From: Burkholderiales bacterium
GTDB taxonomy: Bacteria; Pseudomonadota; Gammaproteobacteria; Burkholderiales; SG8-41
Reading direction: 5' to 3'
DNA length: 64,000 nt
NCBI GenBank assembly: GCA_030684405.1
Contig: JAUXYA010000034.1
Location: 62,001-126,000 of the forward strand
A program made the translations under genes and the position numbers. This document shows, piece after piece, positions 18,159 through 20,714 of this stretch. Below the pieces are notes generated by a model. The model made no database searches. It had not been told where the DNA came from and saw nothing but the letters and a program-made list of their open reading frames with translations. The first letter of the stretch is position 1. Each line of letters opens with the position of its first letter.

Positions 18159-20714
18159 ATGTCACGTCGCATCCTCGTCACCTCCGCGCTGCCGTATGCG
18201 AACGGCGCCATCCACCTCGGCCACCTGGTCGAGTACATCCAGACCGATATCTGGGTGCGTTTCCAGCGCATGCAGGGCCACGAAGTGCACTATGTCTGCG
18301 CCGACGACACCCACGGCACGCCGGTGATGCTGCGCGCGGATGCCGAGGGCATCACGCCGGAAAAGCTGATCGAACGCGTGTGGAAAGAACACAAGCGCGA
18401 CTTCGACAGTTTCGGCGTTGACTTCGACAATTACTACAGCACCAATTCGCCCGAGAACCGGGCGCTGTGCGAAGAAATCTACGGCGCGCTGAAGGCGCGA
18501 GATCTGATTGCCGTGCGCTCGGTCGAGCAGTTCTACGATCCGGTCAAGGCGATGTTCCTGCCGGATCGCTACATCAAGGGCGAATGCCCTAAATGTGGCG
18601 CCAAGGACCAGTACGGTGATTCCTGCGAAGCCTGCGGCGCCACCTACGCGCCGGTCGACCTGAAAAATCCCTATTCCACGGTCTCCGGCGCTGCACCGGT
18701 GCGCAAGGCTTCAGAGCATTACTTCTTCAGACTCTCCGATACGCGCTGCGAGACTTTCCTGCGTGACTTCACCCAGAACGCCGACCGCCTGCAGCCCGAG
18801 GCCGCCAACAAGATGAAGGAATGGCTGGGCAAACCCGGTGAAGCGAAGCTCTCGGACTGGGACATTTCGCGCGACGCGCCCTACTTCGGCTTCGCGATCC
18901 CCGGCACTGACGGCAAGAAGTTCTTCTACGTCTGGCTCGACGCGCCGGTCGGTTATTTCGGCAGTTTCACCCACCACGTTCGCAGCAAGAATCTGGACGA
19001 TAAGCTGCTGCAGGATTTTCTGCGCCCCGGCAGCGACACCGAGCTGGTGCACTTCATCGGCAAGGACATCCTCTACTTCCACGCCCTGTTCTGGGCGGGG
19101 TTGCTGCAGCACGCCGGCTTCCGCACGCCAACGAAGATATTCGCCCATGGCTTCCTGACCGTGAACGGCGAGAAGATGTCCAAGTCGCGCGGCACCTTCA
19201 TCACCGCCGAGAGCTATATCCAGCAGGGGCTGAACCCGGAATGGCTGCGTTATTACTACGCCGCCAAGCTGAACTCGACGATGGAGGACATCGACCTCAG
19301 CCTCGATGACTTCGTCGCACGGGTGAACAGTGATCTGGTTGGAAAATTTATCAATATTCTCAGCCGTGCCAGTGGCTTCATCACAAAGCACTTCGACGGC
19401 CGCTTGCTTGAGCCCCAGCCAGACGTAAACGGACAAGAAGTACAGTGGGCCGCAACCTTCAGAGCAATTGCCGCCGCCGAAGAGGCGAAAGTGGCTTTCG
19501 AAGAACGCGAATATGGCAAAGCTGTCCGGGCCATCATGCGCCACGCCGATCGGATAAACGAGCTTTTTGACGCCGCAAAGCCGTGGGAGCTGGCAAAGAA
19601 AATTCCCGGCGACGACAAAGCCAAGGCTGAACTCCACAGCAAATGCAGTGATTGCATCGCTGCGTTCAAAATCCTGACTTATGCCCTGTCACCCATTCTG
19701 CCGATAACGACCGAACGCATCGCCAAACTTCTTAATCTGCCTCTTCCTTTAAAGTGGTCTGACATCGATACTCCTTGCACCAAAATTCAGCCCTACCAGC
19801 ACCTGATGGCCCGCGTCGACCCCAAACAAATCGAAGCTTTGGTCGCCGCCAACAAAGAAAGCTTCAAACCCGCCTCCCCTCTCCCCCCGGGAGAGGGGTC
19901 GGGGGTGAGGGAACAGCGCAATCCGTCCCGACAAGCCGTCACAAAAAAAACGCCACTGCCCGATGATCTGCTGAACTTCGCCCGCCAGCTCCGCCACGAA
20001 CAAACCGATGCAGAACAGCTGATCTGGGCTTTGCTGCGCAATCGCCGGCTGGCAGACCGCAAATTCCGCAGGCAGCACCCGGTCTCGCTCGGCAATGCCA
20101 ACTACATCCTTGATTTCTACTGCGACGAACTGAAACTGGCCGTCGAACTGGACGGCTCGCAACATCAGGAAGAAAAAGTAAAAGACGACATCCGGACTGA
20201 GGCATTGCAGAAAGCCGGCATTTCCACAATCCGTTTTTGGAATAATGAAATACTTCAGCAAACAGACGCAGTACTGGAGAAACTCTGGAACACGATCATG
20301 GAAAAATCTATTGCAGCATCGTTGCCATCCCCCCTCACCCCCGGCCCCTCTCCCGGGGGGAGAGGGGAGACATCTGGCGCTGATGCGCTGATTTCGATCG
20401 ACGATTTCACCAAGATTGACCTCCGCGTCGCCAGAATCGCCAATGCCGAACACGTCGAAGGCGCCGACAAGCTTTTGCGTTTGACGCTCGACGTCGGCAG
20501 CCTTGGCACGAAACAGGTCTTCGCCGGCATCAAGGCGGCTTACGATCCGGCAGCGCTGACCGGCCGGCTGACAGTGATGGTCGCCAACCTCGCGCCGCGC
20601 AAGATGAAATTCGGCATGTCCGAGGGCATGGTGCTCGCCGCCAGCGGCGAAGCGCCGGGCCTCTACCTGCTGTCGCCCGATTCCGGCGCACAGCCCGGCA
20701 TGCGCATCAAGTAG
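18159..20714 (+). CDS. metG: Methionyl-tRNA synthetase with an in-frame inserted DUF559 nuclease domain
   Basis: Class I MetRS, 851 aa. The catalytic core is complete: HLGH at 19-22, the Zn-binding CPKC and CEAC pairs (about 145-170), and KMSKS at 339-343. The anticodon-binding domain runs to about residue 560 and the C-terminal Trbp111-like tRNA-binding/dimer domain begins at SIDDFTKIDLRVARI (about 743). Between them, residues about 573-737 do not belong to MetRS: repeat-encoded peptide (SPLPPGEGSGVRE), a DUF559 nuclease domain (about 595-717), and repeat-encoded peptide (PLTPGPSPGGRGE). Removing them leaves about 686 aa, the normal length. There is no stop or frame change, so a fusion protein is predicted. 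Composition drops in the insert (23 of 60 G+C at 20221-20280 against 39 of 60 at 20581-20640); it is also low just before it (28 of 60 at 19741-19800). Confidence 0.95.
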   Translation: MSRRILVTSALPYANGAIHLGHLVEYIQTDIWVRFQRMQGHEVHYVCADDTHGTPVMLRADAEGITPEKLIERVWKEHKRDFDSFGVDFDNYYSTNSPENRALCEEIYGALKARDLIAVRSVEQFYDPVKAMFLPDRYIKGECPKCGAKDQYGDSCEACGATYAPVDLKNPYSTVSGAAPVRKASEHYFFRLSDTRCETFLRDFTQNADRLQPEAANKMKEWLGKPGEAKLSDWDISRDAPYFGFAIPGTDGKKFFYVWLDAPVGYFGSFTHHVRSKNLDDKLLQDFLRPGSDTELVHFIGKDILYFHALFWAGLLQHAGFRTPTKIFAHGFLTVNGEKMSKSRGTFITAESYIQQGLNPEWLRYYYAAKLNSTMEDIDLSLDDFVARVNSDLVGKFINILSRASGFITKHFDGRLLEPQPDVNGQEVQWAATFRAIAAAEEAKVAFEEREYGKAVRAIMRHADRINELFDAAKPWELAKKIPGDDKAKAELHSKCSDCIAAFKILTYALSPILPITTERIAKLLNLPLPLKWSDIDTPCTKIQPYQHLMARVDPKQIEALVAANKESFKPASPLPPGEGSGVREQRNPSRQAVTKKTPLPDDLLNFARQLRHEQTDAEQLIWALLRNRRLADRKFRRQHPVSLGNANYILDFYCDELKLAVELDGSQHQEEKVKDDIRTEALQKAGISTIRFWNNEILQQTDAVLEKLWNTIMEKSIAASLPSPLTPGPSPGGRGETSGADALISIDDFTKIDLRVARIANAEHVEGADKLLRLTLDVGSLGTKQVFAGIKAAYDPAALTGRLTVMVANLAPRKMKFGMSEGMVLAASGEAPGLYLLSPDSGAQPGMRIK
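19874..19911 (-). repeat. 38-bp hairpin repeat, left boundary copy
   Basis: Perfect 10-bp stem CCCCTCTCCC / GGGAGAGGGG (19876-19898, loop CCC) followed by the asymmetric tail ending GGTGAGGG. Its reverse complement equals the right copy except A for G at position 13. It is read through in the metG frame as SPLPPGEGSGVRE. Confidence 0.93.
20332..20369 (+). repeat. 38-bp hairpin repeat, right boundary copy
   Basis: Tail CCCTCACCCCCGG (20332-20344), stem CCCCTCTCCC / GGGAGAGGGG with loop GGG (20345-20367), then AG. It is inverted relative to the left copy, so the stems lie outermost. It is read in the metG frame as PLTPGPSPGGRGE. Confidence 0.93.

What the first reader, a model, noticed from the sequence alone, without database searches (positions are those of the whole stretch)
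19874..20369. DUF559 (Vsr-like) nuclease module with inverted hairpin repeats inserted in frame into metG
Seen: residues about 573-737 of MetRS are replaced by a DUF559 domain with an intact PD-(D/E)XK-like site (Asp652, Glu663, Asp665, His669), bounded by two 38-bp repeats that are reverse complements with one mismatch. The whole 496-bp unit is open in the metG frame and sits exactly in the linker between the anticodon-binding and tRNA-binding domains. Solo repeats lie 9-10 kb away. Known: RAYT transposases flanked by inverted REPs mobilise REP/REPIN sequences; DUF559 is a Vsr/HsdR-like nuclease family of unknown role. Inference: DUF559 plus its palindromic repeats form a RAYT-like mobile system that can insert as a protein domain in an essential gene.
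Basis: partly seen in the sequence, partly recalled or inferred. Interest (0 to 1): 0.93.

Follow-up and report, generated by a model that had tools for sequence, protein, structure and literature searches.

The report
Mobile nuclease-hairpin units lodged inside proteins
In this bacterium a 496-base unit, a predicted DNA-cutting enzyme gene (DUF559) between two mirror-image hairpin repeats, sits in frame inside the gene for the essential enzyme methionyl-tRNA synthetase, and units of the same kind sit in frame in many other proteins and between genes, so it is likely a little-noticed mobile element whose enzyme would spread a hairpin repeat that is widespread in bacteria.

Summary
Confirmed, and much wider than metG. 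MetRS here carries an in-frame DUF559 nuclease domain between two inverted 38-bp repeats. The repeat is the TM/PIT triplex motif of Holder et al. 2015, who found no mobility genes beside it in E. coli. Around 100 DUF559 loci, TM density is about 50-fold higher within 150 bp than beyond 300 bp; the nearest repeats point inward (39:4 and 44:8); inverted repeats flank 72 of 100 against 2 of 172 shifted windows. DUF559 and TM co-occur across 232 genomes (odds ratio 25), also at fixed Y1-transposase status. DUF559 clades carry different repeats of similar architecture, and their genomes hold more copies of the matching type. In-frame units sit in MetRS, LeuRS, ValRS, MetH, BioF, MutS, YgiQ, LipB, HrpA, restriction subunits and others. 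In MetRS, insert-bearing and insert-free species are sisters. Likely a homing-like nuclease element with hairpin ends that tolerates life inside proteins. Nuclease activity and mobilisation are untested; 9-bp flanking duplications were seen in one genome only.

The parts
18159..20714 (+). metG, methionyl-tRNA synthetase carrying the in-frame insert (851 aa)
   Evidence: ORF; Pfam and NCBIfam
19874..19911 (+). 5' terminal repeat (TM-type hairpin plus third-strand stretch pointing into the unit), translated as SPLPPGEGSGVRE
19971..20294 (+). DUF559 nuclease domain, MetRS residues 605-712
   Evidence: Pfam PF04480 E 1.1e-33; AF2 pLDDT 94 for the domain alone
20112..20165 (+). active-site codons Asp652, Glu663, Asp665, His669
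   Evidence: conserved in A3
20332..20369 (-). 3' terminal repeat, inverted copy of the 5' one, translated as PSPLTPGPSPGGRGE
9165..9203 (-). solo TM repeat outside metG
   Evidence: core at 9180-9200, exact; sequence
10624..10661 (+). solo variant repeat CCTTCTCCC..GGGAGAAGG with third-strand stretch GGGATGAGGG
   Evidence: 2 mismatches to the core; sequence

Best explanation
The insert is one copy of a likely mobile element made of a single predicted nuclease gene (DUF559, homing-endonuclease-like fold) between inverted copies of a hairpin repeat of the TM/PIT triplex type, and the nuclease would be what spreads both the whole unit and the solo repeats. Shown: unit architecture, its recurrence, inward repeat orientation, matching repeat types, patchy presence in metG, low dN/dS, conserved active site. 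Inferred: the nuclease recognises its matching repeat, perhaps as a folded single strand during replication, and cuts it or an empty target; repair copies the unit into the break, as in homing. Inferred: because these repeats lack stop codons in most frames and encode Pro/Ser/Gly/Glu-rich, probably flexible segments, a unit that lands in frame in a surface loop or linker becomes a tethered extra domain instead of killing the host protein. No intein or intron was found, so the nuclease would be made with MetRS, which would also guard it against loss.
For: Unit. Enrichment: TM core 3.64/kb within 150 bp of 100 DUF559 domains, 1.06 at 150-300 bp, 0.05-0.10 beyond; control motif of the same letters 5 against 109 in the nearest bin. 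Orientation 39:4 (5') and 44:8 (3'). Inverted flanking repeats in 72/100 vs 2/172; 51/68 in the Pfam-found subset, 49/66 at 80% non-redundancy. Genome level: TM in 43/52 genomes with strong DUF559 vs 29/180 others; holds within Y1-positive (OR 16) and Y1-negative genomes (OR 155), while Y1 shows no effect within DUF559-positive ones (OR 0.55, p 1). Matching types: 5 or more copies of type B in 9/12 vs 1/60 genomes, C 5/5 vs 1/67, D 5/8 vs 4/64; types C and D are single DUF559 clades. In proteins: repeat-encoded peptides on both sides in 159 of 218 fusions by a strict pattern, vs 47 of 1106 distant windows. metG: 5 insert rows need 5 supported changes on the host tree; insert dN/dS 0.075-0.185. 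Mobility: three units, 89-98% identical, in otherwise unrelated flanks of one genome. Fold: 3hrl (E 3.6e-8) and homing endonuclease I-Bth0305I (E 2.1e-3, TM 0.65/0.78).
Against: No activity shown. 18 of 100 DUF559 loci have neither inverted repeats nor TM. 13 of 180 genomes without strong DUF559 hold 5 or more TM, one 56 and one 69; among them Y1 transposases do associate with TM (26/119 vs 3/61, p 0.003). For type A (TM itself) the matching-type test is weak: 24/38 vs 13/34, Fisher p 0.058 (rank test p 0.002); counts include the copies beside DUF559 itself. The control motif is also somewhat raised near DUF559 (9 within 300 bp, 9 in all farther bins). An automated search found a target duplication in 1 of 39 units, no more than controls. 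84 of 94 MetRS inserts form one DUF559 clade with one other row, so old insertion with many losses is possible. Only 12 of 28 solo frames are open upstream through the 5' repeat. In E. coli K-12 the TM copies lie only 3' of ycjD. Holder et al. made the triplex in vitro but saw none in vivo; predicted DNA folding of the repeats is no better than shuffles (z -0.6 to -1.35).
Confidence: 0.72

Rival explanations
1. The unit is a passenger: a MITE-like element moved in trans by another enzyme (RAYT or an IS transposase), with DUF559 as cargo that happens to ride between the repeats.
For: Single-gene unit without a recognised transposase; 9-bp duplications in one genome resemble IS transposition; Y1_Tnp is present in 162 of 232 genomes, G000 included, and associates with TM among DUF559-negative genomes (26/119 vs 3/61).
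Against: TM tracks DUF559 within Y1-positive and Y1-negative genomes, and not Y1 within DUF559-positive ones. Repeat type follows DUF559 clade. The active site is conserved. Other transposase families were not tested.
Confidence: 0.17
2. A functional domain fusion: MetRS gained a DUF559 domain for its own use (such as RNA or DNA damage control), and the repeats are incidental low-complexity linkers.
For: Low dN/dS, though dS is near saturation; 93 listed MetRS fusions in other assemblies, most inserts in one clade; insert identity partly follows the host; modelled as a separate domain.
Against: DUF559 with repeat-type peptides sits in more than 15 unrelated proteins and as solo genes. It is missing from sister species. 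One relative keeps a bare repeat in the MetRS linker (L040).
Confidence: 0.07
3. Repeats accumulate near DUF559 for another reason, for example as terminators or insulators of a toxic nuclease gene, without the unit being mobile.
For: The 3' repeat usually starts within about 30 bp of the domain end.
Against: In 24 of 34 solo genes the frame reads through the 3' repeat. Repeats flank the domain inside host genes. Near-identical units lie at unrelated sites. Earlier work found no promoter or terminator activity of the motif (cited in Holder et al.).
Confidence: 0.03
4. Assembly chimera at the repeats.
For: Several contigs of this assembly end in or near such repeats.
Against: The frame is intact, and the same fusion is found in scores of other assemblies; other hosts lie on very long contigs.
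Confidence: 0.01

Closest known systems
RAYT transposases and REP/REPIN palindromes (papers seen as listing and abstract starts only; otherwise recalled)
   Same: Enzyme gene between inverted palindromes; solo and paired copies elsewhere in the genome
   Different: Enzyme is a PD-(D/E)XK-type nuclease fold, not a Y1 transposase; units also insert inside coding genes and stay in the frame
Homing endonuclease I-Bth0305I (PDB 3r3p; its EDxHD/Vsr-like class is recalled)
   Same: Similar fold (TM-score 0.65/0.78, E 2.1e-3); same-gene, patchy occupancy
   Different: No intron or intein found; own palindromic ends; many unrelated host genes
TM / PIT intrastrand triplex motif (Holder et al. 2015, PMC4666352; sections 16, 18 and part 1 of section 20 read, passages elsewhere)
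   Same: Same hairpin plus third stretch; 23 copies in E. coli K-12, 3610 in 262 proteobacterial genomes by their count
   Different: They describe it as intergenic in K-12, with no mobility gene nearby; here it is paired with DUF559 and also found inside proteins
Rickettsia palindromic elements in proteins (recalled; search listing only)
   Same: Palindromic repeats inserted in frame in protein genes
   Different: No nuclease gene in the element (recalled)
E. coli YcjD (DUF559; named as a PD-(D/E)XK family member whose profile detects Vsr in PMC1189080, passages)
   Same: Same family (NF007294, below that model's own cut-off), with TM copies 3' of the gene
   Different: Stand-alone, with no TM on the 5' side

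Membership tests
RAYT/REPIN | Y1 (HUH) transposase in the unit | tested here: not met
   Only nuclease-type models hit the insert in the Pfam scan
RAYT/REPIN | Gene flanked by inverted palindromes of a family repeated in the genome | tested here: met
RAYT/REPIN | Conserved tag tetranucleotide at the palindrome foot | not tested
   not scanned
EDxHD/Vsr-type homing endonuclease | Fold and conserved acidic/His residues | tested here: met
   3r3p_B at TM 0.65/0.78, E 2.1e-3; E. coli Vsr itself is not among the 50 fold matches shown; E619, D652, E663, D665, H669 conserved
EDxHD/Vsr-type homing endonuclease | Housed in a self-splicing intron or intein | tested here: not met
   No intein domain; three Rfam matches, all far below gathering scores and none an intron
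EDxHD/Vsr-type homing endonuclease | Cuts the empty allele | not testable with these tools
   needs a cleavage assay
TM/PIT triplex motif | CCCTCNCCC-loop-GGGNGAGGG-N3-GGGNGAGGG | tested here: met
   Both window repeats match, with a second loop of 5 rather than 3 nt
TM/PIT triplex motif | Forms a triplex | not testable with these tools
   Indirect: mirror third strand (A to T allowed) in 28 of 74 unique asymmetric arms, 1.1 expected
Insertion sequence / MITE | Target-site duplication | tested here: inconclusive
   1 of 39 units in an automated scan; three by eye in one genome
DUF559 (PF04480) | Pfam gathering score | tested here: met
   115.8 bits against a cut-off of 20.6

The most novel reading that the evidence does not exclude
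DUF559 units are a class of mobile element of their own: a stand-alone homing-like nuclease that recognises triplex-type hairpins, spreads them as the long-orphaned TM/PIT repeats of bacteria (E. coli included), and persists by living as a translated extra domain in loops and linkers of core enzymes.
Probability: 0.6. Interest if true: 0.96.

Novelty: categorically new. Interest (0 to 1): 0.92.

Why it matters
It offers a candidate mobilising partner for a widespread orphan repeat of bacteria, counted 23 times in E. coli K-12 by Holder et al., and a role for a little-studied nuclease family. It shows core enzymes (MetRS, LeuRS, ValRS, MutS, BioF, MurU) carrying likely selfish domains in their frames without a splicing system. 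It gives a route by which methylases could gain a nuclease domain. It can be tested at once with K-12 ycjD.

Tried and rejected
Tried without result: (1) Clean empty sites in E. coli TM pairs: nine alleles read at three loci (hrpB-mrcB five, alx-sstT two, lldD-trmL two) were intact, replaced, or collapsed to one palindrome, so no target duplication could be read; a fourth locus was searched but no allele read. (2) Automated target-duplication scan: 1 of 39, no better than controls. (3) TM counts in E. coli with and without ycjD by genome search: records not held. (4) DNA folding energy of the repeats: not significant. (5) metG host and insert trees: a first test on 83 rows did not beat its permutations (r 0.328, permutation maximum 0.337); one of those rows, P0012, is ValRS. 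On 81 rows without it r is 0.298, permutation maximum 0.149, so the insert partly follows the host. (6) My host labels counted 96 MetRS rows; two of them, P0094 and P0012, are LeuRS and ValRS, so 94 remain, and the printed 6 changes for the MetRS label are too many. (7) Rejected: chimera, intein or intron, simple vertical fusion as the whole story. (8) Papers: DUF559 alone, 14 papers, none on repeats by title; palindromic elements in proteins, 19 papers; Vsr/REP terms, 5; GGGAGAGGG/CCCTCTCCC, 504 papers, 20 listed, which led to PMC4666352; ycjD, 8; 'intrastrand triplex' with 'bacterial genomes', 6; Vsr with inverted repeats, synthetase and others, 0; EDxHD homing endonuclease, 11, 8 listed; DUF559/palindrome/transposition/repeat from 2026, six listed, none with DUF559. 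No link between DUF559 and these repeats was seen in these listings and passages; most subscription journals are not in the library.
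Full report
What is there. metG (18159-20714) is a single 851-codon frame. Between the anticodon-binding part and the C-terminal tRNA-binding domain lies a DUF559 domain, residues 605-712, bounded by two 38-nt inverted repeats with one mismatch. The repeat core is not a chance match (4 matches in the window, 0.02 expected), and the genome holds 17 exact copies. 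AlphaFold2 gives MetRS plus a separately folded DUF559 domain, with the repeat-encoded segments 573-597 and 720-750 at pLDDT below 50, so probably disordered linkers. The domain alone models at pLDDT 94.

What the repeat is. It matches the intrastrand triplex motif TM (TMECO, earlier PIT) of Holder et al. 2015 (PMC4666352; sections 16, 18 and part 1 of section 20 read, passages elsewhere): a C-rich arm, a G-rich arm and a second G-rich stretch. They counted 3610 copies in 262 proteobacterial genomes and 23 in E. coli K-12, called it always intergenic in K-12, and found no mobility gene in its context there. Their single strand forms a triplex in vitro; in vivo they saw none. In K-12 one copy lies about 170 bp beyond the 3' end of ycjD, the DUF559 gene, with a degenerate one overlapping the gene's 3' end. 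YcjD was listed as a PD-(D/E)XK family member in 2005 (PMC1189080, passages).

DUF559 goes with such repeats. I fetched 100 loci: 68 from the Pfam search of 232 class genomes (they hold 70 of the 71 non-own hits with E up to 4e-25; the omitted one is a 192-base contig-end fragment; 41 weaker listed hits were not sampled) and 32 from the relatives search (five more listed ones were not fetched, and that output was cut). TM cores with up to 2 mismatches occur at 3.64 per kb within 150 bp, 1.06 at 150-300 bp and 0.05-0.10 beyond. The reversed control motif gave 5 against 109 in the nearest bin, though it too is somewhat raised near DUF559 (9 within 300 bp, 9 in all farther bins). A full TM lies within 400 bp of 58 of 100, on both sides of 37; the nearest copy points inward 39 to 4 at the 5' side and 44 to 8 at the 3' side. 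With no repeat assumed, the left flank and the reversed right flank match (z over 5) in 72 of 100 loci against 2 of 172 windows shifted by 2.5 kb. For the 68 Pfam-found loci alone it is 51, or 49 of 66 at 80% non-redundancy, against 2 of 226 shifted windows; for the other 32 it is 23. Against this, 18 of 100 loci have neither.

Different nucleases, different repeats, similar architecture. Besides TM (type A), flanks carry CCTTCCCCC (B), CCCCTCCTT (C) or CCCCCTTT (D) hairpins; 27 of 100 loci fit none of the four. Many have a third stretch that mirrors the purine arm with A often changed to T, as in a reverse-Hoogsteen triplex: in 74 unique asymmetric arms an 8-of-8 mirror match occurs in 28 and a direct match in 7, with 1.1 expected for each. 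157 of 200 flanks hold a hairpin with the purine arm toward the gene, 20 of 200 one the other way. On a tree of 93 domains, C and D are single clades, and the four types together need 6 changes against 24 for shuffled labels. Genomes whose DUF559 is flanked by a type carry more copies of it: B 9/12 vs 1/60, C 5/5 vs 1/67, D 5/8 vs 4/64 with 5 or more copies; for A it is 24/38 vs 13/34, p 0.058. These counts include copies beside the DUF559 gene itself; in G138 all six D copies lie there.

Genome level and the transposase rival. In 232 genomes TM is found in 43 of 52 with strong DUF559 (best E 4.4e-20 or better) and 29 of 180 others. Y1 transposases, the family of RAYT and of IS200-type enzymes, occur in 162 of 232. 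DUF559 predicts TM within Y1-positive (35/43 vs 26/119) and Y1-negative genomes (8/9 vs 3/61); Y1 does not within DUF559-positive ones (35/43 vs 8/9). Y1 does associate with TM among DUF559-negative genomes (26/119 vs 3/61, OR 5.4, p 0.003). Thirteen of 180 genomes without strong DUF559 hold 5 or more TM, up to 69. Kinship among genomes was not corrected for.

Inside proteins. A search with the metG insert found 1028 proteins of suitable length, 120 listed; one with a BioF fusion found 249, 120 listed. Hosts checked by Pfam or NCBIfam here: MetRS, LeuRS (P0094), ValRS (P0192, and P0012 with two DUF559 domains), MetH, BioF, asparagine synthase, MutS, MurU, LipB, CobT, HrpA, an NAD-dependent epimerase, a radical SAM protein named YgiQ by its sources, hydantoinase B, CobW, PIG-L, HsdM, HsdS, HsdR, MmeI and Eco57I types, N6/N4 and DUF1156 methylases, and an AIR-synthase-like protein. 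By a strict pattern, repeat-encoded peptides lie on both sides in 159 of 218 (10 of 228 dropped for short flanks) and in 47 of 1106 distant windows; most of the 59 misses show by eye variant forms of the same peptides. The site recurs: in 22 of 23 YgiQ fusions the inserted stretch follows DPYA, in 8 of 8 LipB fusions it follows GVYV. In BioF and asparagine synthase it splits a catalytic domain, probably at a loop.

History in metG. On a MetRS tree of 30 relatives (the 30 loci returned of 60 matching genomes) the 5 insert-bearing rows need 5 changes, all forced by supported branches: G000 with insert is sister to G013 without (100/100), G018 to G016 (100/99), G009 to G032 (99/98). G032 keeps a bare 3' repeat in the linker (L040). 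Insert dN/dS is 0.075-0.185 against 0.148-0.329 for the host N part; dS is mostly near or above 1, and two insert values could not be computed. The insert lies before or after a shared linker motif in different fusions, and different repeat frames are used, which speaks for more than one insertion. But 84 of 94 MetRS inserts form one clade with one other row, and insert identity partly follows the host, so long residence with losses is also part of the story.

Mobility. In G090 three units, 89-98% identical, lie in otherwise unrelated flanks. By eye each has a 9-bp direct repeat at its edges (GTGCAGATT; GTTTGTAAC; the same with one mismatch), inside another palindromic repeat. An automated scan of 39 units found such a duplication in one only, no more than controls. 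E. coli TM pairs have collapsed to a single palindrome in some strains. The ycjD region is matched over 80% in 3359 of 5426 E. coli genomes; all 25 such rows listed carry the gene, while three records without it carry efflux genes next to sapF, as PMC12817139 also reports (passages).

How it most likely works. Inference: a homing-like nuclease (closest folds 3hrl and I-Bth0305I) cuts at its own repeat or at targets, and repair copies the unit or the bare repeats. In 24 of 34 solo genes the frame runs through the 3' repeat, and other frames across it are open in 59 of 68 cases, but only 12 of 28 frames are open upstream through the 5' repeat, so the unit is suited to fusion more at its 3' end. 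None of these steps has been tested at the bench.

Noticed in passing
L006-L008, L010-L012, L015, L017: Eight of the 13 solo TM copies read sit in a near-identical composite element of about 170 bp with two hairpins, most ending in TTACGTAA, several near contig ends: a REPIN- or MITE-like family.
   Followed up: partly
L021, L023, L031, L047: Insert-free MetRS linkers share a motif like HSPQRHAQHQ across genera; why a linker is so conserved is unclear.
   Followed up: no
L137: An AIR-synthase-like protein carries DUF559 at its C-terminus, with peptides that look like another repeat family (SPLIRGEEQ, PPDKGGRGVGG).
   Followed up: no
P0069, P0073, P0084, P0089 and other Eco57I/MmeI-type proteins: Fifteen of the 120 listed fusions are Eco57I-type methylases with repeat-type peptides around DUF559, a possible route to new restriction enzymes.
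   Followed up: partly
P0012: A ValRS carries two DUF559 domains.
   Followed up: no
L048 2258-2302: A perfect 17-bp hairpin lies at the 5' side of E. coli ycjD, unlike TM.
   Followed up: no
L198, L199: The five listed E. coli strains with a shortened alx-sstT site (two read as a single palindrome) list 1-2 matching places genome-wide, against 4-9 in the 12 listed strains with the full pair.
   Followed up: partly
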